Origin: an uncultured Candidatus Saccharibacteria bacterium
GTDB taxonomy: Bacteria; Patescibacteriota; Saccharimonadia; Saccharimonadales; Saccharimonadaceae
Assembly (NCBI GenBank): GCA_945873065.1
Contig: CAMCBN010000001.1
Coordinates: forward strand, 186,001 to 250,000
DNA: 64,000 bases
Direction of reading: 5' to 3'
The position numbers and the translations under genes are program-made. Of the stretch, positions 861-23,925 are shown piece after piece; the stretch's first letter is position 1, and the number at the start of each line of letters is the position of its first letter. Under the pieces are notes generated by a model. It did no database searches. It was not told the DNA's origin and saw only the letters and a list, made by a program, of their open reading frames with translations.

Positions 861-3587
861 ATGCAGACCAAATCATCGCTTTTTCAGCGCGTATCGTGCT
901 TAATTCTGTCAGTCGTGGTATTGGCAGGCATGTTTACTTTCATGTCCGGAGGCACTGCATATGCAGACAAGCATGATGATAAAGTCAGAGGATGGACCTT
1001 ATGGACAGCCTTTCGAGGTGATGGTTACTATAGCCATTGTTTTTATCAAGTAGGTTTCATAAGTGATTCAAGTATTGGCGACGGAAGTCATCCTATAGAC
1101 GGGACACTAAATAATGGGGGTAATAGCGGTAAAATAAAGACGGTACTCGACAAGGAAATGACATGTTCTGAAATATTGCACGAGGGCATTCCTCTTTGGG
1201 GTTTTTCTAGTGTAGAAGACTTTCTTAGATCAGCAGGCTGGACACATGTTGACAAAAACCCTTCATGGACTAATGACGACCCTGGATGGACGAATGAACA
1301 CCCACATGTGGGTATATATAATGCTATATACGCTAAGTTAGGTGCAGCAGGTGATTCAGAAGTAGACAAGTACTTAACACCTGCGGAATTGTATTCCTAT
1401 TATTATCAACAGTTCAAGGGTGAACCGTGCAAAGTCAGTTCAGAGGTAGACTACAATTCGGCGAACGAGACGTTACGGTCTTTGGCAGACAATGGCGGAG
1501 ACAATTATATAACATATACCATTATTAATCAAAATAAGCAAGAGCAAAAAGTCATAGGAAAAAAGCGTGCAGGATCAGACGGATCAGACAAAAACACATG
1601 CGACGCTCAAGCCAAGCAAGTCTCAGAACAAGCTAAAAAAGCTGCGGCTTATCTAAAAGATCATCCCGATCAGGGGGTTGGGCAACAAGGCCAAGCTGCC
1701 CCTTCTGCGTCAGGGGGTGATGGTGGTGATGGTTCTGGGGGTGGTGATGGTTCTGGAGGTGGCGGCGGCCAAGACACCAATACTTGTTCTAGCGCTATCG
1801 GTGCCATCGGCTGGCTGCTCTGTCCTATCGTCAACTTCTTGGGGTCCGTTCTTGATGGGTTATTCGATGCTATCAGTACTTTTCTGTCATTTGACCACAG
1901 TATATTCGATAACCAAAAAACACAAGATGCTTGGGAAACTATTCGCTCCGTAGCTAACATTTTACTCATCGCAGCTTTTTTGTTCACTATTTATTCAAAT
2001 ATATCAGGGGTTGGCATCTCAAATTATGGAATCAAACGTCTTTTACCCAAGATGATTATGGTGGCCATACTAATAAACTCCTCTTACTTTGTATGTCGAC
2101 TCCTTGTTGATATATCGAATTTATTCGGTGCCTCTCTATATGGTATGTTTAATGCACTATCCCCATCGGAGAGTGGGTCGGTATGGGGCAATTCGAGCAT
2201 TGCTTCTAACGTCGGAATGATAGTATCTGGAGGAGTTGGTGCTGTTGCAGGGGTAGGGGGTGTCATAGCCAACTTATCGATACTTATTCCTGTAATAGTA
2301 TTTGCTTTTCTTGGCGCTTTATTATCTCTTCTTATTCTTATCGGGCGTTATGCAGGTATTATTATTTTAGCGATTTTTGCTCCTGCAGCGTTTTCTATGA
2401 TTCTCTTTCCAAATGCCGAGAAATTCTTTAAAAAGTGGTGGAGCATGTTTATTGGGCTACTTCTTGTGTATCCGATGGTTTCTGCTGTGTTTGGGTTGTC
2501 TAAATTTGCAGGGTCGGTACTTATGTCAAATTCGGCAATATCTATCCAAATTGCTGGGCTAGGCACTATGTTTATACCTCTTATAGCTACACCATTCTTG
2601 CTTACGAGCGCCATGGGTGCCTTAGGGGCAATAGGGGCAATTGCAAAAACGTGGGGCGCTAGAGCTCGTTCCGGTGTCACGAACAGAGCCATCAAGGGAG
2701 CATATGATACACGTGCTGGGTATATGTGGCGTAACGCAACGGCCTTACGAAAAGGAGCTCTAGAAAGGAAACGGCGGCGACAGCTCGCTAATCCGAACAA
2801 ATTTGAGCGTATGGCTATGGGCGCTATGGCAGGAAAAGAAGGTGCACAGAGGCTCCAACAGCTTTCGAGCCAATACGCCACACAAGAGCGAGAGGAAGAC
2901 ATAAAGCGAGCGACAGACCTACTCCAAGATGGAACCCTGTATGATTTTGCTAGTATTAACGCCGCTATTCACGGTGGCGGTATGATTACGGACAAAAAAG
3001 GCAATACCCGCAAACTGACTAATAACGAGTTTATTGCTGCATCGCAAATAATACAAAGAAAAGGTGACTCTAAGCAGAGTCAAGAAGCGGCTATAGCGGC
3101 CTTTCAATACGCACACACTATGACAGATGAGGAAGACCAAGCTTATCTTCGAAAAAACACAGCTAATATTATGAGAGAAAAAGGAGATGCAGCACTATAC
3201 GGAGCTGGTGCTATATCACAACTAGAGAGTGGTGCTAGTGTAATACAGGCAGAAGATAATAGAGGTAATACAATGACCTTTGATGGAACGAAAGCAGGGA
3301 GTTTGGAGCAATTCCTCAGAGCTAATACTATAAAGAAGATCAATGACGATAAACTATCCCCCGAGGCTGCTTCACGAGATGCCGAGACAGCCAACTACGT
3401 GGCAGATTTGCTGGGTGGCGCAGCAGTAACAGGAACCAACCCGAAAAACGGTGCACCTACTCGTGCTGCGGTTACTAAACAAAAAGCAAAAGATACTCGT
3501 CGTCAATTTAAATATTACTTTGAGCATAACCCAACTGGTCAAACTAAGGTCAAATACATTAGGGATATTTTATCTAAACAACCTTAA
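861..3587 (+). CDS. VirB6/TrbL-like T4SS inner-membrane protein
   Basis: This 908-residue protein looks like the polytopic channel component of a type IV secretion-like system. It begins with a clear signal peptide (about residues 1-35, ending near AYA). An extracytoplasmic region of about 250 residues follows, with several Trp and Cys, then a Gly-rich linker near residues 283-302. Six or more hydrophobic segments lie between about 345 and 620, and a charged cytoplasmic tail of nearly 300 residues rich in Gln, Ala and Arg ends it. The multi-TM block resembles TrbL/VirB6. It heads an operon with PrgI-like and VirB4-like genes, which supports the call. It is far longer than a typical VirB6 (about 300 residues), as is common for CPR versions. 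Confidence 0.72.
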   Translation: MQTKSSLFQRVSCLILSVVVLAGMFTFMSGGTAYADKHDDKVRGWTLWTAFRGDGYYSHCFYQVGFISDSSIGDGSHPIDGTLNNGGNSGKIKTVLDKEMTCSEILHEGIPLWGFSSVEDFLRSAGWTHVDKNPSWTNDDPGWTNEHPHVGIYNAIYAKLGAAGDSEVDKYLTPAELYSYYYQQFKGEPCKVSSEVDYNSANETLRSLADNGGDNYITYTIINQNKQEQKVIGKKRAGSDGSDKNTCDAQAKQVSEQAKKAAAYLKDHPDQGVGQQGQAAPSASGGDGGDGSGGGDGSGGGGGQDTNTCSSAIGAIGWLLCPIVNFLGSVLDGLFDAISTFLSFDHSIFDNQKTQDAWETIRSVANILLIAAFLFTIYSNISGVGISNYGIKRLLPKMIMVAILINSSYFVCRLLVDISNLFGASLYGMFNALSPSESGSVWGNSSIASNVGMIVSGGVGAVAGVGGVIANLSILIPVIVFAFLGALLSLLILIGRYAGIIILAIFAPAAFSMILFPNAEKFFKKWWSMFIGLLLVYPMVSAVFGLSKFAGSVLMSNSAISIQIAGLGTMFIPLIATPFLLTSAMGALGAIGAIAKTWGARARSGVTNRAIKGAYDTRAGYMWRNATALRKGALERKRRRQLANPNKFERMAMGAMAGKEGAQRLQQLSSQYATQEREEDIKRATDLLQDGTLYDFASINAAIHGGGMITDKKGNTRKLTNNEFIAASQIIQRKGDSKQSQEAAIAAFQYAHTMTDEEDQAYLRKNTANIMREKGDAALYGAGAISQLESGASVIQAEDNRGNTMTFDGTKAGSLEQFLRANTIKKINDDKLSPEAASRDAETANYVADLLGGAAVTGTNPKNGAPTRAAVTKQKAKDTRRQFKYYFEHNPTGQTKVKYIRDILSKQP

Positions 3588-3620
3588 TTTGATTGCAATA
3601 AAACGGTTATCTATCGTCCA

Positions 3621-3629
3621 TGCTATAAT
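3621..3629 (+). promoter_or_regulatory. Extended -10 promoter of the PrgI-like gene
   Basis: TGC-TATAAT is an extended -10 box whose last base is 11 nt before the ATG at 3641. A transcript starting about 7 nt downstream would carry only about 5 nt of leader. No good -35 is visible. This suggests that the downstream part of the T4SS operon has its own promoter. Confidence 0.55.
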
Positions 3630-3640
3630 AAACACAGCAT

Positions 3641-5254
3641 ATGTCGAGATACAAAGTTGCGCAGGATGTTGAGGCAGAGGACAAGATTCTTGGGCCGTTT
3701 ACTTTTCGTCAGTTTATCTATCTGATCATCGTAGCGATTTCGATAGCACTGGCGTGGGGGTTGGCTCAAGTGTTTATTTTGTTAGCGATCATACCATTGC
3801 CGATAATCATATTTTTCGGTGCATTAGCACTACCGCTTCGCAAAGATCAGCCGATGGAGGTATACCTAGCGGCAGTCGTAGCATTTTATACCAAGCCACG
3901 CAAGCGAATGTGGCAGCCAGATGGCCTACAATCGCTGATAGAAATCACTGCTCCGCAGACCGTCGAGATCGATCGTGTTAAAAACCTTAGTCAAGACGAA
4001 ACTCAGCGTCGACTAGCTTATTTGGCTAATCTCGCCGATTCGCATGGCTGGTCGATCCGCCACAGTAACATACCCGATAATCAAAGTGCGATGATCAGCG
4101 ATGTATACTTCGAGGCACAGAATTCATCTGATATGTTTGATGATAATGCTACCGAGGTGAGAGCGATCGACCGCCGTATCGAACAATCTAATCAAGAGCG
4201 ACGTCGCGCTGCTATACAACGTATGCAAATCAATCCTACAGCACTACCAGCTGTGGTACCATCATCCGATACAGGTGCGACTCCTCCACAGACACAACGA
4301 CCACCAGCTTACAGCACATCACCATCAGAGCCACATCCCGAACCGAGCTCGACCCCACCGCAACAGTCGTATAACCATAACAGTCTGCCACCAGTAGCTA
4401 TACCGTTCGAACAATACCCAGCGCAACCATCACCAGCTACTACACCAGTCTACGCGGCACCTCAGCCTATTACTCCGCCCCAACCATCGAGCACATCCAC
4501 GCCGCCCCCTGGACCATCCGAGCCAACAGTTTGGCGCTCGACCTATGTTACTGGTGACCCCGAGCCAGCACCGCCTCAGTCAGATCCTCTGACTATAAAA
4601 GACGACAACCTTCAGAAGCTTCCTTCGTCGCTGCCAGCTGTCATCCCACATACACCAGAACTGCCTAATGCACTGACCCAGCCCTATACTCCGCCGAAGC
4701 CAGAGCCTACTGAGGCCGAAGTGACCGCACCAACACCAACACCAACACCAACACCAACAGCATCTCGTGAATCTTCATCGCCAGACGCGTCTTATACACC
4801 GTACAACGATTATCATGATTACGTCGCTACTCTGTTGCAGGGGGTCGATCAGCAACCACCGCAAACTCCACCACCAGTATCATCTCAGCCTACTATGCCT
4901 ACACCGACTCCTTCACCAGTAGTCTACCGTCAGCATGCCGAGAATGATGACAAGTCTATCATTGATGTCGATGTCAAATACAATCCATACCCCAGTATCC
5001 ACCAGTCAGTGATCCAGCCACTCGACAGAGCCTATTACGCCAAGATCACCCCATCTCGCGAAGAACGCGTCGAGCAAGAACGACATGCCCAGGGTACTGG
5101 CGCAAACCAGCCTTCACCTGATATAATTAGATTGGCTAATAATTCTGATTTGTCTGTCGCTACGATTGCCAAAATGGCAAACGAGAGTCGCCAAGCCCAT
5201 GAAGAACAACAATCTAACGACGATGAAGACGATATCGTCATACCGTTGCGTTAA
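3641..5254 (+). CDS. PrgI-family (VirB3-like) protein with long proline-rich tail
   Basis: Residues 1-95 match the PrgI family: a short N-terminus (SRYKVAQDVEAEDKILGPFT), two hydrophobic segments at about 23-66, and the basic Lys-Pro-Arg-Lys-Arg stretch after AAVVAFYTKP. PrgI proteins are VirB3-like partners of VirB4. The remaining 440 residues are low complexity, rich in Pro, Thr, Ser and Gln, with a (Thr-Pro)n run encoded by a CCAACA repeat, and end in an acidic tail. The family is usually about 100-120 residues, so the tail is a large addition, possibly an extended cytoplasmic linker. The GTG of the next gene follows 20 nt after the stop. Confidence 0.8.
   Translation: MSRYKVAQDVEAEDKILGPFTFRQFIYLIIVAISIALAWGLAQVFILLAIIPLPIIIFFGALALPLRKDQPMEVYLAAVVAFYTKPRKRMWQPDGLQSLIEITAPQTVEIDRVKNLSQDETQRRLAYLANLADSHGWSIRHSNIPDNQSAMISDVYFEAQNSSDMFDDNATEVRAIDRRIEQSNQERRRAAIQRMQINPTALPAVVPSSDTGATPPQTQRPPAYSTSPSEPHPEPSSTPPQQSYNHNSLPPVAIPFEQYPAQPSPATTPVYAAPQPITPPQPSSTSTPPPGPSEPTVWRSTYVTGDPEPAPPQSDPLTIKDDNLQKLPSSLPAVIPHTPELPNALTQPYTPPKPEPTEAEVTAPTPTPTPTPTASRESSSPDASYTPYNDYHDYVATLLQGVDQQPPQTPPPVSSQPTMPTPTPSPVVYRQHAENDDKSIIDVDVKYNPYPSIHQSVIQPLDRAYYAKITPSREERVEQERHAQGTGANQPSPDIIRLANNSDLSVATIAKMANESRQAHEEQQSNDDEDDIVIPLR
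4730..4759 (+). repeat. Hexanucleotide repeat (CCAACA)x5 in the PrgI-like gene
   Basis: Five perfect tandem copies of CCAACA encode an alternating Thr-Pro tract. Because the unit is a multiple of three, slippage would change the protein length without breaking the frame. The same unit occurs at the start codon of the gene at 8065. Confidence 0.9.
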
Positions 5255-5274
5255 GAGAGAAGGAGTAAGCCACG

Positions 5275-6213
5275 GTGCCACCATCAAACCAGTATCCACC
5301 AGCACCAACTGAGTATCCGACTCAGCCATCACAGCCATACCCTCAAACCCCTCAAGGCACCAATGGGTATGCGCCGCAGCCGACAGGGCCGATAACAGCT
5401 CCTGCGCCAGTATCCCCGCAAACTCCACCTACTGAGCCACTGCCAGACCGTACAGACAACACCAATGGCAATCCTTCAAACAAAAAATCTCCGCAAAAGC
5501 CAGCCACTACCCAGAATAGTCTACTTATTTCAGAATTACGCGATAATATGGTCATCATGGCCGATGGAAGCTTCCGAGCGATCATCGCCTGTGAATCGAT
5601 CAACTTCGACCTAATGAGTGCTCGCGAGCGTGAGGGGGTCGAGTTCAGTTATCAAAATTTCCTCAATGCTTTATACTTTCCGATCCAGATATGTATCCGA
5701 TCGCAACGGGTCGACATTGGTCCATATATCGATAAGCTGGTCGCTATTCGTCGTTCACAAGACAATATGCTGCTCGGAGTATTGATGGAGGATTATATTA
5801 ATTTCATCGACGATCTATCGCAAGAAGCTAATATTATGGACAAAAGCTTCTACTTGGTCATTCCTTATTATCCTACCGGGGAAGGGTCGCTGATCGACCA
5901 AGGTAAAGGGTTTTTTGCTAAAATCTTCGCGCCCAAGAAAGCTAATGCTGTCACTCAGATCAGTAAAGAGACTTACGAAAAAGCCAAAGAAGAGATCCGT
6001 AACCGTGTCGACTCTGTCCTCAATGGTTTAATGCAGATCGGTGTAAGATCAGCTCAGCTCAAGACAAAAGAGCTCGGTACGTTGTATTATAATATGTATA
6101 ACCCCGATACCGCCGTGCGTGAGCCGCTAGGTGATTTCACCAAGGTGACCTCGACATTTGTCCGTAAAGGGCAGGGGGAAGCGCCACGCGTCGGTGAAGG
6201 AGGATTACAATAA
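5275..6213 (+). CDS. TraC-like / VirB4 N-terminal-domain protein
   Basis: This 312-residue protein has about 85 Pro/Gln/Thr-rich residues followed by a folded domain starting near SLLISELRDNMVIMADGSFR. That domain resembles the N-terminal, non-ATPase part of VirB4/TraC proteins, which in CPR bacteria is often a separate gene. It lies between PrgI and the VirB4 ATPase; its TAA (6211-6213) directly abuts the next ATG at 6214. The start is GTG with a strong Shine-Dalgarno (AAGGAG) about 9 nt upstream. No Walker motif is present, so it is unlikely to be an ATPase by itself. Confidence 0.72.
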   Translation: MPPSNQYPPAPTEYPTQPSQPYPQTPQGTNGYAPQPTGPITAPAPVSPQTPPTEPLPDRTDNTNGNPSNKKSPQKPATTQNSLLISELRDNMVIMADGSFRAIIACESINFDLMSAREREGVEFSYQNFLNALYFPIQICIRSQRVDIGPYIDKLVAIRRSQDNMLLGVLMEDYINFIDDLSQEANIMDKSFYLVIPYYPTGEGSLIDQGKGFFAKIFAPKKANAVTQISKETYEKAKEEIRNRVDSVLNGLMQIGVRSAQLKTKELGTLYYNMYNPDTAVREPLGDFTKVTSTFVRKGQGEAPRVGEGGLQ

Positions 6214-8046
6214 ATGGCACGACGACCGGATCCAATCGATATCGCAGCTCAACAGCGTGAACGCGAACAGATGGAAGTAGAGCAAGCCTTTATCAAAGGT
6301 ATGACTACTCTACGAGATCTGATCGCACCGAGTAGCCTCGAGCTACACAGTAGCTATTTCCGTATCGGTACGAAATACGGTCGGACTTTGTATATTTACG
6401 GTTATCCCCGCGAATTGTATACTGGATGGCTTTCGGGTCTCATTAATATCGACCAAGTGCTCGACATCAGCATGTTTATTTATCCAGTCGAGACAGAAGT
6501 CGTGCTCAATAACCTTCGCAAAAAGGTGACCCAGCTCGAAGCTGATATGGCCATCCAAGCCGAAAAGGGCAAGGTGCGCGACCCAGGCCGTGAAGCTGCT
6601 CTAGCCGACGCCGAAGAATTACGCGACCAGCTACAATTAGGGGCCGAGCGATTCTTCCGTTTTGGTCTTTATATCACCCTGTACGCTGATAGTCTCGAGG
6701 AGCTAAGCTTCGTCCAGCACGTTATCGAAACCATCTTCGGCCAAAATATGGTCTATAGCAAGACTGCCAGTAGTCAACAAGAACAGGGCCTCAATAGCAC
6801 CATTCCACAGATGACTGATCAGCTCCAGGTCCGCCGCAACATGAACACTGGCGCTGTCAGCACCAGCTTCCCGTTCACCAGCGCCGACCTCAGTGATGGC
6901 AAGGGGATTTTGTATGGTGTTAATCAACACAACCAAGGGTTAGTAATCTTCGACCGGTTTAGCCTAGAAAACGCCAACATGGTAGTTTTCGCGAAATCTG
7001 GTGCTGGTAAATCGTTCACCGTCAAACTCGAAGCACTCCGTAGTATGATGATGGGCACCGATGTGCTAGTGATCGACCCTGAAAATGAGTACCAAAAATT
7101 AGCCGATGCCGTTGGTGGGAGTTACATTCGCCTAAGTCTTAGCAGCGAGACGCGGATCAACCCATTTGATCTACCTCGAGTGATCGATAGCGATGAGGCG
7201 ACAGATGCATTGCGCGCCAATCTGATCACCCTGCAGCGATTGTTTAAGCTCATGCTCGGTGGTTCCCTCGTTGGTGGCCAGCAAATCGCCTTACTCAGCC
7301 CAGCAGAAGAGGCTGATCTTGACCAGGCTCTGATCGACACTTACGCTCGTGCCGGTATCACTAGCGACCCACTGACACACAATTCTCAGCCACCGACGAT
7401 TATCGACCTGTACGACACATTGTCACATATGGGTGGAGCGGGCCCATCATTGGCACAGCGTTTGCGCAAGTATACTACAGGTACTTTTGCTGGTATATTT
7501 AGCCAACAAAGCAACGTTGATATTAATAACAGTATGGTCGTCTTTAATATTCGTGACCTCGAGGACGACCTACGCCCAGTGGCTATGTATATTGTACTGA
7601 GCCACATTTGGAATATCGCTCGTACCATCCAGCGTCGTCGTATGCTGATCGTCGACGAAGCGTGGCAATTGATGAAATACGAAGATTCAGCTGAGTTTTT
7701 GCACAGTTTAGCTAAGCGTGCACGTAAATATTCCCTAGGTCTAACCACCATCACTCAGGACGTTGAAGACTTTATGGGTAGCGAGAAAGGTCGAGCAATC
7801 GTAGCGAACAGCTCATTGCAGCTGCTACTGAAACAGTCTACCAGCGCCGTCGACGTATTGGCAGAGGTGTTTAAATTGACCGAAGAAGAGCGCAAACGTC
7901 TATCGAATTTCCCAGTCGGTGATGGGCTATTCTTTGCCGGGCAAAATCACGTCCATATCCGTATTTATGCTAGCGAGACCGAGCAACAGTTTATCACTAC
8001 CAATCCTGTTGGTAATAATAGTTTATATCAGCCACCGGCTCATTAA
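6214..8046 (+). CDS. VirB4-like T4SS ATPase
   Basis: This 610-residue P-loop ATPase would power the secretion or conjugation-like apparatus at the inner membrane. Walker A (KSGAGKSFTV) is near residues 261-270, followed by VLVIDPENEYQKL. Walker B (MLIVDEAW) is at about 477-484, and a TTITQDVEDF segment follows, as in VirB4/TrbE/TraC. The N-terminal 230 residues hold a small coiled-coil-like insert. The preceding gene supplies the part normally fused to its N-terminus, so the pair equals one VirB4. No relaxase, VirD4 or VirB11 gene is visible in the window. Confidence 0.9.
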   Translation: MARRPDPIDIAAQQREREQMEVEQAFIKGMTTLRDLIAPSSLELHSSYFRIGTKYGRTLYIYGYPRELYTGWLSGLINIDQVLDISMFIYPVETEVVLNNLRKKVTQLEADMAIQAEKGKVRDPGREAALADAEELRDQLQLGAERFFRFGLYITLYADSLEELSFVQHVIETIFGQNMVYSKTASSQQEQGLNSTIPQMTDQLQVRRNMNTGAVSTSFPFTSADLSDGKGILYGVNQHNQGLVIFDRFSLENANMVVFAKSGAGKSFTVKLEALRSMMMGTDVLVIDPENEYQKLADAVGGSYIRLSLSSETRINPFDLPRVIDSDEATDALRANLITLQRLFKLMLGGSLVGGQQIALLSPAEEADLDQALIDTYARAGITSDPLTHNSQPPTIIDLYDTLSHMGGAGPSLAQRLRKYTTGTFAGIFSQQSNVDINNSMVVFNIRDLEDDLRPVAMYIVLSHIWNIARTIQRRRMLIVDEAWQLMKYEDSAEFLHSLAKRARKYSLGLTTITQDVEDFMGSEKGRAIVANSSLQLLLKQSTSAVDVLAEVFKLTEEERKRLSNFPVGDGLFFAGQNHVHIRIYASETEQQFITTNPVGNNSLYQPPAH

Positions 8047-8064
8047 TGAGGTAATTAGAGAAAT

Positions 8065-11000
8065 ATGCCAACACCAACACCAACACCAACCCCAGCTCCA
8101 CGACCGCCCAGCCGACCAACTGGCCCGATCCGCAATCCTGGACAGCGTCAATGGAACCAAAGAATCAACCGTTCACGCCCAAGTTACGCAAACCGACTTC
8201 ACGATCAAGAGTCAGCCGGCAGTGCTACTTCATACAATACGAAGCCAGGTGGCGGTGGCGGCTATGATTTCGTCAACTCGATGAATTCATTCGGTAATTC
8301 GAGTGGTAGCTCTGCTGATCCGCTGACGGTGTTTGGTTCAAACCCAAGTCGTGGCGACTCTAACGAAGACATCCCAAATAACACCGTTAATGATGATGCC
8401 GCCGATGATGCCGCCGATGATGCTCGCCAGCAAGAAGAAAACCCATCAGGTAGTTGGGCTGATAACACTACCCCCGGAGAGAAGGTCGCTAATGCCGCCA
8501 AAAACATCAAGGGCGGCAAATTCGGTAAAATTGGAAGATTTGGCCCTGTTGGGTTTATCATTTTCGTTATGTTATCACTAGCCAGCGTCGTTTCGTTCTT
8601 TGGTGGCCCAGGCTTGATGATCGTCCATGTGGTAGAGGCTATTACCTCAAAATACAGTTTGCCACTCGCTTCTGTCATGGAAAGCCGCTCTCACAAAATC
8701 ATCAAAGCCAAGCTCAAAAACTCAACTACTGGTATGTGTACCCCTGTCAAAGTGCGTTGTAAATACGCCACTTTTTCCGAACGAGAGATAAAAAACCTCA
8801 AGAAAGCTGGCATTGAGTTTGAGGGTAAAACGAAAGAGTTCGGTATTGGCAGCCATAAATGGGTCAAGCCAGAAGGCTTGAAATGGACCGACAAATCAGG
8901 CAAGACTACCATTATCACACCTGAAGAATTTAGCAAAAAAGTCAAGAGCATGCCAGAGTTCGCCGAGGCGCTTCATACCGCCTATAACCCTCATTTTAGC
9001 TCAATAAGAAACAATGTTTTTCTCAAATTAAGGGAAAAGTTTCGTATACCCGATGATAAACCAAAACACACTGACGAAAAAGACAAAAATCAAGCAGCAG
9101 AAGGAATTAGCGAAGAATCGAGAAATGGGAGAAAAGCCGACAAGGCAAATGCTCCCACAAATAAAGACGACCCCAACTACCAAGGTAATGACCCCGATGG
9201 TTGTGATAGCGAATGTCAGAAAAAGAATGGCGTTACCAGTGACCTGAACCAAGCGGCCGACGGCACTGACTCGGAAGCTTCCAAGCTAGCCAGAGCGGCT
9301 GGTCATAGCGGACTCGAAACGGTAACTAAGACACTAAAAGTAACTGGTGCTGTCGATGACGCCTGTAGTGTCTATGGCATGTACAAAGCTGTATCACTTG
9401 GTGTCAAGATGGTCCGTAACGTCCAGCTCATGCGCTTCGCGATGCTGACACTGACGACTGGTAGTATGATCAAAGCGATGAATGAATTTGGTAATGGTAA
9501 CAGTAGCGACACACTCACCCCGGAGAACGTTGCTTTCGTCGGCACGTTATGGACGCAGACCATGCGTCATACCGAAAAAGACGACAAAGGTAAAGATGTG
9601 ATCACCACTACAAAATCCGGTATCGAGTCATTCGGTTTTCGCTACGCGGCTTATGGCGATTCTGGCATCGATGACGCTGCATCGCTTTACACGAATGGTG
9701 GAAGTTTCGGTGGCAGCACCTTCGGCAAAGTCAATGACGCTATCACCAAAATAGTCGATGGCATCGGTGGCCGCAAAGCTGCCGACACGACCTGCAAGGT
9801 CAACAACAACATATTTGTTCAAGGCACTGTCTTGATAGGAAGTATCGCTCTCATGCTTATACCTGGAGCAGGAGCTGCCATAAAGGCTAGTACTTTGGTA
9901 GTACAAGCTGGTCTGCAGGTAGCACTTCAAGTAGCCCAAGCAATACTACCGGGCATTCTAGCCGACATATTATCGGGCTATGTCTTACCAAAGACCTTCG
10001 ACGAGCTCGCGGGGGAGGTCACTGGCAACGCGACCGTCTCTGGTGCAGGGGCATTAATGTCGGCAAACAGTCGCCAGAGCATGGCACCATTGACTGCCAG
10101 CCAGGCACAAGCCAACAAGCCGTTTTACGATCAATACCAGCGGCAATACGCCCGCGAGCAGCGTGCTACCCATAGTCCGTTCGACGCTACATCGAAGTAT
10201 ACTTTTCTCGGTAGTATTTATAGTCAGTTTATGCCAACATTTGCCAAAATGCAAACTGGGCGCCTGAGCGATATCTTCTCTGCTTTCGGTAAGCTTGCTG
10301 CCGCACCGAGTCGTATATTTTCTGCCAAAGCAAATGCTGCTGCTGGCGAAACGTACGATACTTGCAAAGACACCGAGTATCGCGATCTAAATCTTGCTAC
10401 CGATCCATTCTGTAACATCGTTTATGGTACAGACAATAACACCGAGCCCGACGAACTCGCTAACTCACTCAGCGACAGCGGTGAAGTCGATGATGAAGGC
10501 AAGCCAACTGGCAAATTCGCTGAGTGGACGAAACGTTGCAACGAAAGCGACACCCCTATAGGCAGCACTGGTGAAGACTCCACCGAAAGCGATGGCAGTG
10601 AGTGTCTCCTTGGTAACGGCAAAAACAGTGGTAAATACGCCACCTACAAAGTCGACCAACTCATCCTTGATAGTATGGAGAATGGTGAAAGCGAAGAGGG
10701 ATCTGGCGGTAGCTCCTCTTCTGGCTCAAGCTCGTCAGTACCAACAGGTGATGCCAAGTCGCTGGCTCAGCAGATTTTAGACAACCCGAATATCACGATA
10801 TCTGATGGCGAATGGAGGAGCGGCGTCTCCCCCAAAGAACAGATCGCCAACACCGCTGCTGGCCAAACGGCTATACCATCACCTATAGCAACACAATACA
10901 GCCGTAACGTCGACCCAAGGATTCTCCAAGTCATTCTTTTGGTTGCTCAAAAACACAAAATAAACATCACCTCCTTGCTTCGCATCAGTAATACAGTCAG

Positions 11001-11268
11001 TGGTGGCCAGTCTCTTCATCCATACGGAAAAGCAGTAGACCTTAGTCCGATAGGTGGATGCGGAGATGGTGCTGGCGAGGAGTGTATCCAGGCCATACAA
11101 GAAGTGATGGATTCTAATATACTGCCACAAGGAGGAGGTTTCGGCCAAAAATCATGCGGTGGGGGCAGAGGATCGATCAATGCTGCCATTACCGCCAAGG
11201 GATTAGTCACATTTGACGATGGTTGTACTCATCTTCATATTGATCTCGGCCACAACTCAGGAGGTTGA
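8065..11268 (+). CDS. Large membrane protein with C-terminal M15-type peptidase-like domain
   Basis: This 1067-residue protein begins with a Thr-Pro run encoded by a CCAACA repeat, then a low-complexity acidic region. A hydrophobic segment lies near residues 160-195 and a second hydrophobic stretch near 585-640. The last ~140 residues look like an M15 (D-Ala-D-Ala carboxypeptidase/VanX-type) fold: SLHPYGKAVDL at 983-993 gives His985 and Asp992, and THLHID at 1055-1060 gives His1058, the classic zinc-ligand spacing. I infer that this end faces the cell wall and trims peptidoglycan at the T4SS channel. The upstream VirB4 gene ends 18 nt before, so they are in one operon. The central 600 residues match nothing I recognise. 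Confidence 0.68.
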   Translation: MPTPTPTPTPAPRPPSRPTGPIRNPGQRQWNQRINRSRPSYANRLHDQESAGSATSYNTKPGGGGGYDFVNSMNSFGNSSGSSADPLTVFGSNPSRGDSNEDIPNNTVNDDAADDAADDARQQEENPSGSWADNTTPGEKVANAAKNIKGGKFGKIGRFGPVGFIIFVMLSLASVVSFFGGPGLMIVHVVEAITSKYSLPLASVMESRSHKIIKAKLKNSTTGMCTPVKVRCKYATFSEREIKNLKKAGIEFEGKTKEFGIGSHKWVKPEGLKWTDKSGKTTIITPEEFSKKVKSMPEFAEALHTAYNPHFSSIRNNVFLKLREKFRIPDDKPKHTDEKDKNQAAEGISEESRNGRKADKANAPTNKDDPNYQGNDPDGCDSECQKKNGVTSDLNQAADGTDSEASKLARAAGHSGLETVTKTLKVTGAVDDACSVYGMYKAVSLGVKMVRNVQLMRFAMLTLTTGSMIKAMNEFGNGNSSDTLTPENVAFVGTLWTQTMRHTEKDDKGKDVITTTKSGIESFGFRYAAYGDSGIDDAASLYTNGGSFGGSTFGKVNDAITKIVDGIGGRKAADTTCKVNNNIFVQGTVLIGSIALMLIPGAGAAIKASTLVVQAGLQVALQVAQAILPGILADILSGYVLPKTFDELAGEVTGNATVSGAGALMSANSRQSMAPLTASQAQANKPFYDQYQRQYAREQRATHSPFDATSKYTFLGSIYSQFMPTFAKMQTGRLSDIFSAFGKLAAAPSRIFSAKANAAAGETYDTCKDTEYRDLNLATDPFCNIVYGTDNNTEPDELANSLSDSGEVDDEGKPTGKFAEWTKRCNESDTPIGSTGEDSTESDGSECLLGNGKNSGKYATYKVDQLILDSMENGESEEGSGGSSSSGSSSSVPTGDAKSLAQQILDNPNITISDGEWRSGVSPKEQIANTAAGQTAIPSPIATQYSRNVDPRILQVILLVAQKHKINITSLLRISNTVSGGQSLHPYGKAVDLSPIGGCGDGAGEECIQAIQEVMDSNILPQGGGFGQKSCGGGRGSINAAITAKGLVTFDDGCTHLHIDLGHNSGG
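8068..8091 (+). repeat. CCAACA repeat directly after a start codon
   Basis: Three perfect and one imperfect CCAACA units follow the ATG at 8065 and encode the Thr-Pro run. It is the same unit as at 4730-4759. Confidence 0.85.
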
Positions 11269-11300
11269 TGTAAATATATAAAGGATAAAATACCAATATC

Positions 11301-12566
11301 ATGATGTGTTACATAATGTTACCCAATAAACAGAAACAGCGATACACGTTTAGCAAGAGCACTTCCATCAGGCGTGGTATCTTGTTTTTGTTGATAGCAG
11401 TAATGACTTTCACTAACAATAGCTTAGTCCATGCTGTCAACATGGAGTTTATGTCACAGATCGATGCACGATGGTACAACGATGAGGGCAAAAACTGTTC
11501 TACAAGCACTACTGGGGGCACAGACGGAACTGGTGCGACTAGTACGGCTGATTTGAAAGAGTTTGTCAAAAAGTATATTAGTATGGCTGTAGAAGTGAAC
11601 AAGAAATACGGCCTCCCCTACGAGGCAATTTTAGCACAGGGTTCTATCGAATCAGCATATGGCCGCTCTGGACTAACAGTCAACGCTAATAATTTCTTCG
11701 GCATCAAGGCAGGGGGTAATTGGTCTGGTGATGTTGTCAATATGTCCACCGAAGAAGAGGTCGGTGGTGGCCGTACTACCATAGTCGATGGGTTCCGTAA
11801 ATACCCAACTGTCGAAGCAGGCTGGCTTGACTACGGGGAGTTCATCACCAAAAATTCTCGCTACAAAGAGGCTCTTAAATATCCAGGCGACCCCCGTAAA
11901 TATATCCAGGAAATCAAAAATGCCGGGTATGCTACTGCTAGCGAGTATGTTGAGATAAACATCAAGCAAATCGCTTCTATTGAACAAATCGTTAAAGAAG
12001 AGAATCTTTCGCCACCGTCATCAGAAATTAAAGTCGAGGGCGGTGGATCGGCATCGACGAGTGGTGCTAGCGGCTCAAACGGTTGTACATCTTCAGGTAT
12101 AGCTGGTGCTTCGGCTAGCAAAATTGTCGAAAAAGCCAAAAGTTTAGCTTGGGAAGATGGAAGAACCGTTGGTGATGGTAGCGAAAAGCCAGAATACCGA
12201 GAAGCTCGGTCGCAGTACAACCCAGGAGGGGGGTCAAATACTGATTGCGGACGTTTCGTCGCAACAGTGATGCGCGCCAGTGGAGCTGACCCTGATTATC
12301 CACCTGTCGGAACTTCTGTGCAATATCCGTATCTTGAGAGTAAAACCGACAAATACTACACCAAGAAGTCTCCTGCCGCTACAGATTTACAGCCAGGTGA
12401 TATATTGATCTTCAATGGGCATACTCTTATCTATACTGGCGACATTGGCAATGGGTTTACTATGACACAAGCATCTCTCGGCGACCATGTACCGAGTTAT
12501 CGGACACAATCTACTGTCGAGTGGATGTTAGGTCAATCAGGAGTAATGTTAGCAAGGTTAAAATAA
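11301..12566 (+). CDS. Secreted wall hydrolase: glucosaminidase + CHAP/NlpC-like domain (VirB1-like role)
   Basis: The 421-residue protein has an N-terminal signal or anchor (about residues 28-48). A glucosaminidase/lysozyme-like domain spans about 85-240; the motif AILAQGSIESAYGRSG holds the likely catalytic Glu117, and NNFFGIKA follows. A Ser/Gly linker leads to a CHAP/NlpC-like domain with the expected Cys316 (NTDCGRF) and His374 (FNGHTLIYTG). Together it could cut both glycan strands and peptide bridges, the job of VirB1-type enzymes that open the wall for a T4SS. The ATG at 11301 is preceded by a weak GGAT; the next in-frame ATG at 11304 is also possible. Confidence 0.8.
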   Translation: MMCYIMLPNKQKQRYTFSKSTSIRRGILFLLIAVMTFTNNSLVHAVNMEFMSQIDARWYNDEGKNCSTSTTGGTDGTGATSTADLKEFVKKYISMAVEVNKKYGLPYEAILAQGSIESAYGRSGLTVNANNFFGIKAGGNWSGDVVNMSTEEEVGGGRTTIVDGFRKYPTVEAGWLDYGEFITKNSRYKEALKYPGDPRKYIQEIKNAGYATASEYVEINIKQIASIEQIVKEENLSPPSSEIKVEGGGSASTSGASGSNGCTSSGIAGASASKIVEKAKSLAWEDGRTVGDGSEKPEYREARSQYNPGGGSNTDCGRFVATVMRASGADPDYPPVGTSVQYPYLESKTDKYYTKKSPAATDLQPGDILIFNGHTLIYTGDIGNGFTMTQASLGDHVPSYRTQSTVEWMLGQSGVMLARLK

Positions 12567-12567
12567 A

Positions 12568-13311
12568 ATGGAAACGTTTGATTATCTCATACAACGATAC
12601 AGGCGAGAGCTAATGCTTGCGGGTATATTCCTTGCTGTAATAGTAGGTGCATTAATTATCAAATGGTACAGCGATACTATCACATATGATGCCACGCTAT
12701 ACGTCTACTCTGTACCAGATAGATTGACAGTATCTTACGATAACGTTAAAAACCAAGGTTTATCCTCGAAAACGAAGCACCCGGTCAAAAGTGGTGAATA
12801 CACGTTCACTTTTAAGGCAGATGGTTTTAGTGAATATTCTACCAAGTTGTCTATCAAAAAAGGGGAGCAAAAGATTTTGGTGTTTGCACTTACACCTCAA
12901 ACAGAGGCAGCTCGTCGAGAATCAGCAAAGGATAAATATCGCGAAGTATACGATGGTGTTGGTAGCAAAAAAGCAAACCAAGGCGCAGCTAAACTAGAGC
13001 AATCTGCTCCATTAGTCAATAAACTACCGTATTACAGTCGCTGGTGGTATGTTATTACGTGTAAACCATATCGCACAGCAGACCGCACCCAAAGACTAGG
13101 TGTCTGTATTGTAACCTCCGACAAAAACAGTAAAGAGCAGGTCGATCAAGCTATGAATTACCTTAAGAAAAATGACACAAACCTCGACCGATACGACCTC
13201 AAGATAAATGGCTATCCATACCCAACATCAAAAGAGATGCGCGAAAATACCTTGATGCCTTGCGGTGGCAGCCAACCTTCGTGGTGTTATATTTATCCTG
13301 AAGAACATTAA
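12568..13311 (+). CDS. Membrane-anchored protein with PEGA-like domain
   Basis: This 247-residue protein has one membrane segment at about residues 16-33, then a PEGA-like beta domain (about 42-112: ATLYVYSVPDRLTVSYDN, then SGEYTFTFKADGFSEY). The C-terminal part has three Cys (ITCKPYR, LGVCIV, MPCGGSQPSWC) and no known domain. PEGA domains usually sit on the outer face of the membrane and may bind surface structures. Its ATG begins one nucleotide after the stop of the wall hydrolase, so it is the last gene of the T4SS-like operon. Confidence 0.6.
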   Translation: METFDYLIQRYRRELMLAGIFLAVIVGALIIKWYSDTITYDATLYVYSVPDRLTVSYDNVKNQGLSSKTKHPVKSGEYTFTFKADGFSEYSTKLSIKKGEQKILVFALTPQTEAARRESAKDKYREVYDGVGSKKANQGAAKLEQSAPLVNKLPYYSRWWYVITCKPYRTADRTQRLGVCIVTSDKNSKEQVDQAMNYLKKNDTNLDRYDLKINGYPYPTSKEMRENTLMPCGGSQPSWCYIYPEEH

Positions 13312-13371
13312 TTGATAATCACGAACTAGTATAAAGTGTCTGTCTGTATACATTTTTAGTTCATTCAATAT

Positions 13372-14406
13372 TTATTTTACAATAGAAACATATTTTGTAT
13401 CAGCAGGCAAGTTAATCACTTTTTCCGTGGTGGTAATTATAACTTGATGCGTGGCAAATGTATATGAGAGATTTTGCTTGCGCTGATCATCTAATTCACC
13501 AAAAACATCATCGAGTAGAAATAACGGTCTCTTACCTGTCTGCTGTTCAATAACTTGTAGTTCAATAAATTTTAATGCTAACACAGCTGTACGGATCTCA
13601 CCTCGCGACATCACTGCTGCCGGCTGATTATTAAATTGCAATTGGAAGTCATGTCTATGCGGGCCAATACTAGTAAAACCAAGAATCTGGTCTCGTGCGA
13701 CTGCTTGCTCTAATTGAGCTAATAATGTCTGACTCGTCAACGGCTCAGTTAGGCTATACTGTATAGATAATATGTCGTTTGTGTGTGAAATAGACTGATA
13801 TATCGATCGTAGTCGCTGTTGTATATCTACTATTATTTGTTGTCGTGCTGATACAATAGCTGCACCATACTGAGCTAGGGAAATATTCCAAGCGAAGAGG
13901 TTTGATAGATCTAGCCCGGATTGCTGTTTTAATATCTCATTTCGCTGTCGTAATATTCGTTCATATCGCCGTACTAAAATACTATATTGCGGATTTATCT
14001 GTTCTATGAGCAGATCAAGATATTGTCGTCGTCTAGCAGGACTGCCGTTGATAATTCGTAAGTCGTCCGGCTCAAATAACACTATCGGCAACCGCTGGTC
14101 TTTAGTTAATATTGCTCGAGTAGTGGCATTTATAGTAAATGATCGCTTACGTTCAAATGACTTATAAATGACAGTGCGCGATTGTCGTTCATATTGTCCA
14201 TCAATACGTAGCCATGGTTGATCATAGCTCACTAATTCTCGCAAACTGCCACGAAATGATTTACCTTGATACAGTAGATTAATAGCCTCTAAAACCGATG
14301 TTTTACCCGCACCATTAATACCGTGCAATACTGTCACGTGTGGCGCAAAGTTAACCGCCGTATCGGCATGACTGCGAACATGTTGCAAACGAATCGATCG
14401 AAGCAT
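13372..14406 (-). CDS. recF: DNA replication and repair protein RecF
   Basis: RecF loads RecA at gapped DNA with RecO and RecR. The 344-residue protein has Walker A GINGAGKT at 29-36, the ABC-type signature MSRGEIRTAVLALK near 270, and Walker B LFLLDDVFGELDD near 300, all in the right order and at family length. It follows dnaN with a 6-bp gap (14407-14412), the classic dnaA-dnaN-recF order. The 3' end faces the T4SS operon, with about 60 bp between the stops. gyrB, which often follows recF, is absent here. Confidence 0.95.
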   Translation of the reverse strand: MLRSIRLQHVRSHADTAVNFAPHVTVLHGINGAGKTSVLEAINLLYQGKSFRGSLRELVSYDQPWLRIDGQYERQSRTVIYKSFERKRSFTINATTRAILTKDQRLPIVLFEPDDLRIINGSPARRRQYLDLLIEQINPQYSILVRRYERILRQRNEILKQQSGLDLSNLFAWNISLAQYGAAIVSARQQIIVDIQQRLRSIYQSISHTNDILSIQYSLTEPLTSQTLLAQLEQAVARDQILGFTSIGPHRHDFQLQFNNQPAAVMSRGEIRTAVLALKFIELQVIEQQTGKRPLFLLDDVFGELDDQRKQNLSYTFATHQVIITTTEKVINLPADTKYVSIVK

Positions 14407-14412
14407 TCCTAG

Positions 14413-15513
14413 TTAGCTCTTTAGCGGCATAATAATATGTACATAATTTGGCTCATCGCCGACTGCCGAGAGGACACATGGCGATAATTTACCACTAAAA
14501 CGAAACTCGACTTGCTCACCGTCTATCACATGCAATGCATCAGTAATATAACGTGAATTAAGTGTGATCACACCATTGCCCGTCACATCGGCATCAGCCG
14601 AGCTGACATTCTCACCGAGCTCACTCGCGATTGAATGAATACTGATATTTTGCTTTTCGTCGTCGATCGTCACTGTCACACTACCACCAGAATCACGTGC
14701 AAATAGCCCAGCCACCTTAACGACACGTGAAAAGTCATTTGCGTGCACTTTAGCAGTAGTCTCCGATTGACGTGGTATAAGCTGACGGTAGTTCGGGTAA
14801 GTACCATCGATCAACCGACTAGTAATCTCTATATCATCGAGCCGAAATCGTACCTGCGTGTCATCAAATAATACATCGACCGCCTCTGTAGTATCGCCAA
14901 GAGAACGCAGTACTTCCTGCAAACTACTTGCTGGTACGATCGCTGCGATATCGCTCTGGCTAGCCATTAATTGCCGCTCAGCCAGACGATATCCATCCGT
15001 GGCGGCGAGATACAATTGTCCTTCGACAGTATGCCAATATACCCCTGTCAAAACCGGACGCGACGTATCATGTCCACACGCTACCAATGTCTGTTGAGCC
15101 GCTTGCTTGAAATCGACGACCGCTACTGAATATTGCACTGCTTGCGACTCATCGATCGTAGGTAGCTCTGGAAAATCATCAGCTACCACTCCATTAATGA
15201 CCGAGGTATAACCACCAGAAGTGATAGTCATTTTCGTGTCATCTGTCGTTAATTCTAACGTACCTTTCGGCAAGCTAGCTACAAATTCACCCACCAACTT
15301 TGCTGGCAGTGTGATCACACCTGGCATTTCGACCTTTGCTCCAACGTAACAGGTCGCGGCTATCTCCAAATTAGTAGCAGCCACTAATAGCCGCGTACCT
15401 TCTGTACGGAACAGGACATTACCTAGGATAGGTAGTCCAGTTTTTCCATCTGCTACTCTACCAACTATGTTTAATGCTCGCGCTAAATTTTCTTGAGTAA
15501 CTGAAAGTCTCAT
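14413..15513 (-). CDS. dnaN: DNA polymerase III beta subunit (sliding clamp)
   Basis: The 366-residue clamp starts MRLSVTQENLARALNIVGRV and ends with the conserved PNYVHIIMPLK, both typical of DnaN. It forms the ring that holds DNA polymerase III on DNA. A good Shine-Dalgarno (AAAAGGAG) sits upstream of the ATG, so this gene has a leadered mRNA, unlike many others here. The upstream 15514-15809 region holds DnaA boxes. Confidence 0.96.
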   Translation of the reverse strand: MRLSVTQENLARALNIVGRVADGKTGLPILGNVLFRTEGTRLLVAATNLEIAATCYVGAKVEMPGVITLPAKLVGEFVASLPKGTLELTTDDTKMTITSGGYTSVINGVVADDFPELPTIDESQAVQYSVAVVDFKQAAQQTLVACGHDTSRPVLTGVYWHTVEGQLYLAATDGYRLAERQLMASQSDIAAIVPASSLQEVLRSLGDTTEAVDVLFDDTQVRFRLDDIEITSRLIDGTYPNYRQLIPRQSETTAKVHANDFSRVVKVAGLFARDSGGSVTVTIDDEKQNISIHSIASELGENVSSADADVTGNGVITLNSRYITDALHVIDGEQVEFRFSGKLSPCVLSAVGDEPNYVHIIMPLKS

Positions 15514-15809
15514 ATATTAAACTCCTTTTCTTTTTTTTAAAGGTGAAGGTAATAATAGGCTTTGTGGATAGTGTGAATAACTGCGCTTCAACAGGGGTGA
15601 GATGCAAAAAACTATGGGGATAATAGTATGATAAATCGGTGTTTAGTTTCGTGGATAAAATAGCTTTGTACACACGGCAAGCAAAAACCCTAATGAAGCT
15701 GCTAGTCGATGTGGATAAAGTCACACAATCTATCCACCAATATATAAGACGTGAAAACACATTTTTTCCACAGCGTGAAATGATAAAAAATAATGAGTAG
15801 TGGCTCGGT
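15514..15809. other. Probable oriC half: DnaA-box cluster between dnaN and dnaA
   Basis: This 296-bp gap has no gene. It contains a perfect DnaA box TGTGGATAA at 15710-15718. Near matches are TGTGGATAG at 15563-15571, TGTGAATAA directly adjacent at 15572-15580, CGTGGATAA at 15650-15658, CTATCCACC at 15730-15738 and TTTTCCACA at 15764-15772. The dnaA-dnaN spacer is the usual origin position in bacteria with this gene order. A frame reading 15458-15850 on the - strand is spurious. Confidence 0.75.
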
Positions 15810-17192: not shown

Positions 17193-17231
17193 GATAACCT
17201 CCGTATGTTAGATGATATAGATACTCTTCTT

Positions 17232-17260
17232 AGTATACGGAACTACAGAGTTTTCCACAA
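17232..17260 (-). promoter_or_regulatory. dnaA promoter with embedded DnaA box
   Basis: On the - strand TTGTGG (17255-17260) and TATACT (17232-17237) are separated by 17 bp. The -35 overlaps the DnaA-box-like TTTTCCACA (read on +) at 17251-17259. Bound DnaA would block RNA polymerase. The predicted leader is about 33 nt and contains GGAGG. Confidence 0.65.
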
Positions 17261-17313
17261 TCGTGAGAAATACAACGCATCAAAAAATACACGAAAGGTG
17301 ACGGGGGTGGTCG

Positions 17314-17354
17314 TTTTCCACAGTTTAGCACTACATCTGTTAAACTGTGGAAAA
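17314..17354. promoter_or_regulatory. Perfect 14-bp dyad made of two DnaA-like boxes
   Basis: TTTTCCACAGTTTA (17314-17327) and its exact reverse complement (17341-17354) flank a 13-nt spacer. Each arm carries one TTTTCCACA box in opposite orientation. A further box-like AGTGGATAA lies at 17367-17375. The dyad is in the dnaA-rpmH divergent gap and is likely part of the origin or a DnaA operator. Confidence 0.75.
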
Positions 17355-17402
17355 ATTACAAGATAAAGTGGATAATCTTAATGGGGATCATGAATAGAAC
17401 GG

Positions 17403-17431
17403 TTGAAAATATCGGTAATAACCAGTATAAT
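17403..17431 (+). promoter_or_regulatory. rpmH promoter (near-consensus)
   Basis: TTGAAA (17403-17408) and TATAAT (17426-17431) have the ideal 17-bp spacing. The start codon at 17441 is only 9 nt after the -10, so the mRNA should be leaderless or have 1-3 nt of leader. An in-frame ATG at 17381 lies upstream of the promoter and cannot be the start of this transcript. Confidence 0.8.
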
Positions 17432-17440
17432 GCAGCCTAT

Positions 17441-17578
17441 ATGCCAAAGCGAACATATCAACCACATACACGTCATCGTGCACGAACACATGGGTTTCGG
17501 GCTCGGATAGCTAGCAAGGCTGGCCGAGCGGTTTTGAAGCGTCGTCGTGCAAAAGGTCGCGCAAAGATTGCGCTATAG
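17441..17578 (+). CDS. rpmH: 50S ribosomal protein L34
   Basis: The 45-residue product begins [20 protein letters not shown] and ends with the basic [12 protein letters not shown], a textbook L34. I choose the ATG at 17441 over the one 60 nt upstream because the family starts with [15 protein letters not shown] and the promoter lies between the two. It stands just upstream of rnpA, in the usual order, and divergent from dnaA. Confidence 0.96.
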
Positions 17579-17599
17579 GAAAGGACGATTTTATCGTAG

Positions 17600-17629
17600 A
17601 TCCGCCATAGTAGGCGGATTTGCTATAAT
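17600..17629 (+). promoter_or_regulatory. rpmH-rnpA hairpin and rnpA extended -10
   Basis: ATCCGCC-N6-GGCGGAT (17600-17619) forms a seven-base-pair hairpin directly upstream of TGC-TATAAT (17621-17629), an extended -10. A smaller hairpin (ACGAT-TTT-ATCGT) is at 17585-17597. The arrangement may end or attenuate rpmH transcripts while a separate promoter drives rnpA. The -10 ends 12 nt before the rnpA ATG. Confidence 0.5.
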
Positions 17630-17641
17630 GAGATACCACAT

Positions 17642-17986: not shown

Positions 17987-18023
17987 GTAAATATGATACA
18001 ATAGACACAGTATTGGAGAGCGT

Positions 18024-18938: not shown

Positions 18939-18953
18939 GGGAGGTATGTATCT

Positions 18954-19415: not shown

Positions 19416-19484
19416 TATTTTAACCAGGAAAAACATACGTTTTCCAAGTGGTTGAGTTTATAGTATACTCCGGTTTCGAAGTTA

Positions 19485-23918: not shown

Positions 23919-23925
23919 ATACACT

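What the first reader, a model, noticed from the sequence alone, without database searches (positions are those of the whole stretch)
861..13311. T4SS-like operon with two wall-cutting enzymes next to the origin
VirB6/TrbL-like, PrgI-like, split VirB4, a membrane protein ending in an M15-type zinc peptidase, a glucosaminidase+CHAP enzyme and a PEGA protein form one tight + strand unit. No relaxase, VirD4 or pilin is seen in the window, so the machine may export proteins, take up DNA or act on the host wall rather than conjugate. Early position near oriC gives high gene dosage. T4SS-like genes are known in CPR genomes, but the muralytic pairing and function are unclear.
Basis: partly seen in the sequence, partly recalled or inferred. 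Interest (0 to 1): 0.6.

Follow-up and report, generated by a model that had tools for sequence, protein, structure and literature searches.

The report
Conserved secretion motor, exchangeable wall-cutting tips
Tiny bacteria that live on other bacteria keep a nearly unchanging secretion motor beside their replication origin, but swap the wall-cutting proteins encoded next to it even between near-identical relatives, which points to these enzymes as tools fitted to different host cell walls.

Summary
The operon is real: seven tightly packed + strand genes (861-13311), convergent with recF-dnaN-dnaA. It is the Saccharibacteria (Patescibacteria) monoderm-type T4SS, already published: PrgI/VirB3, VirB6, a genuinely split VirB4, wall hydrolases, near dnaA. 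Related genes are essential in Southlakia epibionticum. Missing parts lie elsewhere in the genome: seven VirB2-like pilins plus a second VirB6 20-28 kb upstream, and VirD4/TraD-like ATPases. No relaxase was found (three families tested).

The new element is evolutionary. Across relatives, VirB4 averages 83% identity (dnaN 62%), but VirB6 33% and the 1067-aa protein 29%. In sisters with 99% identical dnaN, DNA similarity stops about 8 bases into the 1067-aa gene and resumes at recF. That protein is a membrane stem of no known fold with an interchangeable C-terminal tip: M23, VanY/M15, an M15/Hedgehog-like type (this window), CHAP/NlpC, amidase, BSP protease, DNase I-like, or none. The next enzyme also varies. 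In this window the stem is closest to M23-tipped stems, while the tip is closest to other genomes' tips.

Best reading: a fixed motor with exchangeable, probably host-facing wall-cutting tools. The transported cargo remains unknown.

The parts
861..3587 (+). VirB6/TrbL-like translocon protein, 908 aa: N-terminal signal-like segment, variable region, conserved transmembrane core (about residues 310-580), variable tail
   Evidence: PF04610 in 18 of 40 orthologs
3641..5254 (+). PrgI/VirB3 protein, 537 aa; PrgI domain at residues 5-90, then a long proline-rich tail
   Evidence: PF12666 E 3e-12
5275..6213 (+). VirB4 N-terminal part as its own gene (TrsD-like), 312 aa, GTG start
   Evidence: NF041427 8e-6; precedes VirB4-C in 88 of 96 loci
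6214..8046 (+). VirB4 C-terminal ATPase part, 610 aa, the most conserved gene of the locus
   Evidence: NF045971 8e-114 above cut-off; mean identity 83%
8065..11268 (+). Stem-and-tip membrane protein, 1067 aa: proline-rich cytoplasmic start, membrane segment 162-180, hydrophobic stretch 583-637, conserved cysteines; hypervariable
   Evidence: no PDB fold match for the full model
10726..11265 (+). Exchangeable tip: M15/Hedgehog-like putative zinc peptidase domain
   Evidence: invariant H, G, D, G, H, H columns; fold hits Hedgehog N and MepA; other classes at the same place in relatives
11301..12566 (+). Secreted VirB1-like wall hydrolase, 421 aa: glucosaminidase plus weak NlpC/P60-CHAP-like domain
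   Evidence: PF01832 4e-28; NlpC/P60 0.0014 alone, below cut-off; signal-like segment 27-45
12568..13311 (+). Membrane-anchored PEGA-like protein, 247 aa
   Evidence: PF08308 8e-4, just below cut-off; membrane segment 15-33
15514..15809 (.). dnaN-dnaA gap, probable oriC: two perfect DnaA boxes (15572-15580, 15710-15718), about 2.2 kb from the operon's end
   Evidence: about 0.02 boxes expected in a gap of this size at the window's shuffled rate

Best explanation
This is the chromosomal Saccharibacteria type IV secretion system. A conserved motor (PrgI/VirB3, split VirB4) and translocon core (VirB6 transmembrane part) work with exchangeable surface parts: the VirB6 regions outside the core, a membrane stem protein with a swappable hydrolase tip, and a secreted VirB1-like hydrolase. 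The tip and the hydrolase most likely open cell wall where the epibiont touches its host, cutting peptide bonds (tip, NlpC/P60-like domain) and glycan (glucosaminidase); with pilins encoded elsewhere, macromolecules could then cross. Shown: gene order, families, the conservation contrast, allele replacement, tip swapping, absence of the tested relaxases. Inferred: that the enzymes act on the host wall, that variation follows host identity, that the distant pilins and ATPases belong to this machine, and what is transported.
For: Family matches and conserved synteny. Mean identity over 150 random pairs: VirB4-C 83, dnaA 69, VirB4-N 63, dnaN 62, PrgI 53, VirB6 33, stem protein 29%. In 18 close pairs (dnaN at least 85%): dnaN 90, VirB4-C 94, but VirB6 38, stem 37, hydrolase 37%; alignable DNA fraction 0.98 for VirB4-C, 0.02 for the stem gene. 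L097 against L038: about 84% DNA identity to 8 bases into the stem gene, nothing for 4.6 kb, then 91% from recF on. Tips of 73 orthologs by Pfam, final classes; 34 class changes on the VirB4 tree, shuffled labels 36-46, mean 41.3. Best neighbours of stem and tip agree with dnaN's top five in 25 and 24 of 45 genomes, VirB4-N in 42; the window stem is nearest M23-tipped L032, its tip nearest L039 and L033. Own wall chemistry should hardly differ between sisters with 99% identical dnaN, hosts can. Published: the T4SS is essential for S. epibionticum growing on its host (PMC10633639); peptidase and lysozyme genes just downstream of virB4 are essential (PMC12102498, citing that work).
Against: No host is known for these genomes, so variation cannot be tied to host identity. 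No activity is shown. VirB1-like hydrolases of conjugation systems open the donor's own wall. 14 of 73 stem proteins have no recognised tip. The tip fold match is moderate (TM about 0.4, best E 0.02). Phage or competitor pressure on exposed proteins could give the same pattern. Most loci are from metagenome-assembled genomes.
Confidence: 0.55

Rival explanations
1. Ordinary VirB1 function: both enzymes only open the epibiont's own peptidoglycan so that the T4SS channel or pilus can be built. The variation is loosely constrained drift and domain turnover.
For: VirB1-like proteins of monoderm T4SSs (PrgK, TraG, Orf14) are multidomain and differ between systems (PMC12857230); stem protein is membrane-anchored; 14 of 73 lack a recognised tip.
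Against: DNA of the block is unalignable between sisters whose dnaN is 99% identical, with sharp edges: replacement, not drift. Own wall should be constant between such sisters.
Confidence: 0.25
2. The variation is escape from phages or competitors that use VirB6 and the stem protein as receptors; hydrolase specificity is secondary.
For: Hypervariability falls on proteins with predicted exposed parts; pilins of Patescibacteria also vary (PMC12102498).
Against: Escape needs no change of catalytic class, yet classes change 34 times on the tree, and the secreted hydrolase varies too.
Confidence: 0.12
3. A degenerate or cryptic conjugative element (ICE) whose relaxase is lost or unrecognised.
For: MPF-FATA-like parts; TraD/VirD4-like ATPases in the genome.
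Against: No relaxase of three families; same chromosomal place in 61 of 67 loci; VirB4 more conserved than dnaN; essential in a studied relative (PMC10633639).
Confidence: 0.04
4. DNA or nucleotide uptake machine: the enzymes breach the host wall and the T4SS imports host nucleic acid.
For: Proposed in PMC11665869 for the Saccharibacteria T4SS; two orthologous tips and two neighbouring hydrolases carry an Exo_endo_phos domain, which in principle could be a nuclease.
Against: No direct evidence of direction or cargo; the nuclease-like tip is rare and its substrate is unknown. Compatible with the main explanation as its cargo side.
Confidence: 0.2

Closest known systems
T4SS of Patescibacteria/Saccharibacteria, MPF-FATA-related (PMC12102498; Southlakia epibionticum SEML1_0006-0019, PMC10633639)
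   Same: PrgI/VirB3, TrsD-like protein plus VirB4, VirB6, wall hydrolases downstream of virB4, pilin arrays, coupling proteins away from virB4, usually no relaxase, place near dnaA
   Different: Here the pilins lie 20-28 kb from the operon beside a second VirB6. Tip exchange and hypervariable VirB6 and stem protein were not found described in the papers read
pCF10 PrgK / pIP501 TraG / Tn916 Orf14, VirB1-like multidomain hydrolases (PMC12857230)
   Same: Membrane-linked or secreted proteins with several wall-cutting domains in a monoderm T4SS operon
   Different: Functions sit on two proteins; the 1067-aa stem matches no solved structure, and the catalytic class changes between close relatives
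Staphylococcal pGO1 TrsD/TrsE
   Same: N-terminal VirB4 part encoded as a separate gene
   Different: Chromosomal at the origin, no relaxase found
Phage tail lysins (PF18013 phage tail lysozyme)
   Same: 47 of 66 hydrolases at this position carry that domain with varied second domains
   Different: The operon is a T4SS with no phage structural genes seen; the window member has a glucosaminidase instead
M15 (LAS) metallopeptidases and Hedgehog N-domain
   Same: Zinc-ligand motifs HxxGxAxD and HxH; top fold hits
   Different: Window tip matches no Pfam model; fold E only 0.02; activity untested

Membership tests
Monoderm (MPF-FATA-like) T4SS, Patescibacteria clade | VirB4 ATPase of the CD1110/FATA kind | tested here: met
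   NF045971 8e-114, above cut-off
Monoderm (MPF-FATA-like) T4SS, Patescibacteria clade | VirB3/PrgI next to VirB4 | tested here: met
   PF12666 3e-12; PrgI in 62 of 62 loci
Monoderm (MPF-FATA-like) T4SS, Patescibacteria clade | VirB6 polytopic translocon protein | tested here: met
   18 of 40 orthologs match PF04610, the window copy alone does not; several membrane segments
Monoderm (MPF-FATA-like) T4SS, Patescibacteria clade | VirB1-like wall hydrolase | tested here: met
   PF01832 4e-28 inside the operon
Monoderm (MPF-FATA-like) T4SS, Patescibacteria clade | VirB8 (NTF2-like) subunit | tested here: inconclusive
   No PDB fold match for the stem protein; the other proteins were not folded
Monoderm (MPF-FATA-like) T4SS, Patescibacteria clade | Coupling protein (VirD4-like) in the genome | tested here: met
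   C3:99986-102811 and C1:51366-53966, C2:713-2299; none in the operon, link to this machine not shown
Monoderm (MPF-FATA-like) T4SS, Patescibacteria clade | VirB2-like pilins (feature of the Patescibacteria systems) | tested here: met
   7 PF18895 matches at C1:161.5-165.9 kb
Conjugative element (ICE) | Relaxase | tested here: not met
   PF03432, PF03389, PF08751 absent from the 97% complete genome; other relaxase families not searched
Conjugative element (ICE) | Mobile, scattered location | tested here: not met
   recF/dnaN/dnaA beside it in 61 of 67 loci
M15 / LAS zinc metallopeptidase (tip domain) | Zinc-ligand motifs HxxGxAxD and HxH | tested here: met
   His, Asp and HxH columns invariant in 10 relatives
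M15 / LAS zinc metallopeptidase (tip domain) | LAS/Hedgehog fold | tested here: inconclusive
   Top 22 hits are Hedgehog N or MepA, but best E 0.02 and TM about 0.4; model pLDDT 72
M15 / LAS zinc metallopeptidase (tip domain) | Cuts peptidoglycan peptides | not testable with these tools
   needs an enzyme assay

The most novel reading that the evidence does not exclude
Saccharibacteria carry a host-range cassette system: an essential T4SS with a near-invariant motor, onto which VirB6 surface regions and a stem-tip hydrolase block are exchanged horizontally, with stems and catalytic tips recombining separately, so that each lineage carries wall-cutting tools fitted to its host. The stem is a new class of T4SS surface subunit with no known fold.
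Probability: 0.4. Interest if true: 0.85.

Novelty: new variant of a known kind. Interest (0 to 1): 0.6.

Why it matters
The role of the Saccharibacteria T4SS is described as completely unknown (PMC11665869) although it is essential for growth on the host (PMC10633639), and what fixes the strain-level host specificity of these epibionts is open. A fixed motor flanked by two blocks that are replaced between near-identical relatives gives a direct, testable candidate: cassette type should predict host wall type and swaps should shift host range between laboratory strains. It also supplies a set of natural wall-cutting modules built on one scaffold.

Tried and rejected
Conjugative element: rejected as first choice (no relaxase of three families, fixed chromosomal place). 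VirB4 split as a sequencing error: rejected, same split in 88 of 96 loci. Stem protein as VirB8: no NTF2-like or any PDB fold match, nor a PDB sequence match outside the tip region with a 40-sequence profile; that profile's hits are nearly all M23 enzymes because M23 tips dominate the alignment. Window tip by sequence: no significant PDB match, Hedgehog proteins at E 0.12 on the motifs only; no Pfam match. VirB6 against PDB: only low-complexity glycine-rich matches to antibody linkers. VirB11: four strong T2SSE matches lie elsewhere; their lengths fit pilus ATPases but contexts were not worked through. Promoter and terminator scans were near shuffled expectation or only moderately above it and decide nothing. 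The CHAP profile built in-house included stem sequence and cross-matched other classes, so it was not used for classification; classes were set from Pfam counts, in-house M15-like/VanY/M23/EEP profiles and reading of tails.
Full report
What is there. The reported unit exists exactly as described: seven + strand genes from 861 to 13311 with gaps of 0 to 53 bases, then recF, dnaN and dnaA on the other strand. Two perfect DnaA boxes lie in the dnaN-dnaA gap (15572 and 15710), about 2.2 kb from the end of the operon. Families: PrgI, VirB4 of the CD1110 family with its N-terminal part as a separate TrsD-like gene, glucosaminidase, a weak NlpC/P60-like domain, a marginal PEGA match. VirB6 is supported through its orthologs, 18 of 40 of which match TrbL/VirB6. 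Relatives are named Saccharibacteria or Saccharimonadia in most public records.

How general it is. In 96 loci holding the VirB4 C-part, the split is present in 88. Where enough sequence is held, PrgI and VirB6 precede it in 62 of 62 loci, and recF/dnaN/dnaA follow, convergent, in 61 of 67. So this is a fixed chromosomal fixture, not a passing element. It matches the published Patescibacteria T4SS (PMC12102498), including TrsD, PrgI, nearness to dnaA and the usual lack of a relaxase. Wang and co-workers found the T4SS essential for S. epibionticum on its host (PMC10633639), and PMC12102498 states that peptidase and lysozyme genes just downstream of virB4 are among the essential genes.

What lies outside the window. 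Seven VirB2-like pilins sit at C1:161.5-165.9 kb with a second VirB6 at C1:158.4-161.3 kb, 20-28 kb upstream of the operon. Two TraD/VirD4-like ATPases are at C3:99986-102811 and C1:51366-53966. A third VirD4-like gene (C2:713-2299) lies in a GC-rich 9 kb block at a contig end and among 25 relatives a close copy was found only in G012 (93% identity; the same genome holds a second, 30% identical one), so it looks like accessory DNA. Relaxases PF03432, PF03389 and PF08751 were not found.

The 1067-aa protein. It begins with a proline-rich stretch, has a membrane segment at 162-180 and a hydrophobic stretch at 583-637, and conserved cysteines. Its AlphaFold model (mean pLDDT 68) has no PDB match at E below 0.6. 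Its last 180 residues hold invariant His, Asp and HxH motifs; the model of this part (pLDDT 72) retrieves Hedgehog N-domains and the M15-clan enzyme MepA as the first 22 hits, best E 0.02. The M15-type claim is therefore supported by motif and by consistent but moderate fold evidence.

Tips are exchanged. Pfam on the last 260 residues of 73 orthologs gives Peptidase_M23 in 27, VanY in 12, M15_4 in 3, CHAP 2, NlpC/P60 2, Exo_endo_phos 2, and one each of Amidase_2, BSP and Hedgehog-signal. With the in-house profile for the window-like type, the classes used were M23 26, VanY 12, M15-like 13, CHAP/NlpC 4, DNase I-like 2, amidase 1, BSP 1, none 14. These assignments were partly made by reading the tails. 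On the VirB4 tree the class changes 34 times; shuffled labels need 36-46, mean 41.3, so only weak inheritance remains. The enzyme encoded next varies too: phage tail lysozyme in 47 of 66, glucosaminidase in 5, with C39, CHAP, GDSL, Amidase_3, NlpC and other second domains.

A fixed motor between two variable blocks. Over random pairs mean identity is 83% for VirB4-C, 62% for dnaN, 33% for VirB6 and 29% for the stem protein. In 18 pairs with dnaN at least 85% identical, VirB4-C is 94% but VirB6 38%, stem 37% and hydrolase 37%; the alignable DNA fraction is 0.98 for VirB4-C, 0.09 for VirB6, 0.02 for the stem and 0.10 for the hydrolase. In L097 and L038 (dnaN 99%, dnaA 100%) the DNA aligns through PrgI and VirB4 to about 8 bases into the stem gene, not at all for 4.6 kb, and again from the end of recF. 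Drift cannot give such edges; replacement by divergent alleles can. These pairs are not independent (several share genomes), so the counts illustrate rather than test. Nearest neighbours also part company: for VirB4-N the best neighbour is in the dnaN top five in 42 of 45 genomes, for the stem in 25 and for the tip in 24; the window's stem is nearest L032, which has an M23 tip, while its tip is nearest L039 and L033. Its closest relative by VirB4 (L034, 96%) has a VanY-type tip and a stem about 27% identical.

Reading. The most economical account is a conserved T4SS motor whose wall-cutting and exposed parts are matched to something that differs between close relatives. The epibiont's own wall should not differ much between such sisters; the host's can. 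I therefore favour host-wall cutting at the contact site, at about 0.55. Direction and cargo remain unknown: effector export and nucleic-acid uptake have both been proposed by others (PMC10633639, PMC11665869). Own-wall remodelling and phage escape are the main rivals.

What is new and what is not. The operon, its origin-side place, split VirB4, pilins and essential hydrolases are known. I did not find tip exchange or the contrast between motor and surface parts described in the open papers searched; subscription papers and supplements were not available. [quoted passage not shown]

Noticed in passing
Own genome C1:158396-165995 (L135), outside the window: A second VirB6 (958 aa, - strand) beside seven VirB2-like pilin genes, six on + and one on -, 20-28 kb upstream of the operon.
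   Followed up: partly
Own genome C2:1-9000 (L028): GC-rich block (about 0.55 against 0.42-0.45 next to it) at a contig end with a lone VirD4-like gene; a 93% identical copy of that gene lies on a 6.4 kb contig of relative G012. Possibly a mobile element or plasmid.
   Followed up: partly
L045 (relative G021), 8703-19949: Two tandem copies of the stem, hydrolase and PEGA-like genes without VirB4 beside them, suggesting that the block can be duplicated as a unit. Extra stem genes also occur in L099, L106 and L107.
   Followed up: no
L065 and L069, C-terminal 260 residues of the stem protein: Tip is a DNase I-like Exo_endo_phos domain instead of a wall hydrolase; substrate unknown.
   Followed up: no
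window 3641-6213 and 8065-8500: PrgI tail, VirB4-N start and stem start are all proline-rich and low in complexity; the PrgI protein here (537 aa) is longer than in most relatives (about 270-430 aa).
   Followed up: no
window 19485-47495: Large cluster that by eye holds glycosyltransferases, an ABC-2 type exporter and nucleotide-sugar genes, i.e. surface polysaccharide synthesis.
   Followed up: no
window 22006-23954: By eye a SucC/SucD-like (succinyl-CoA ligase) gene pair, odd for a genome of a group said to lack the TCA cycle.
   Followed up: no
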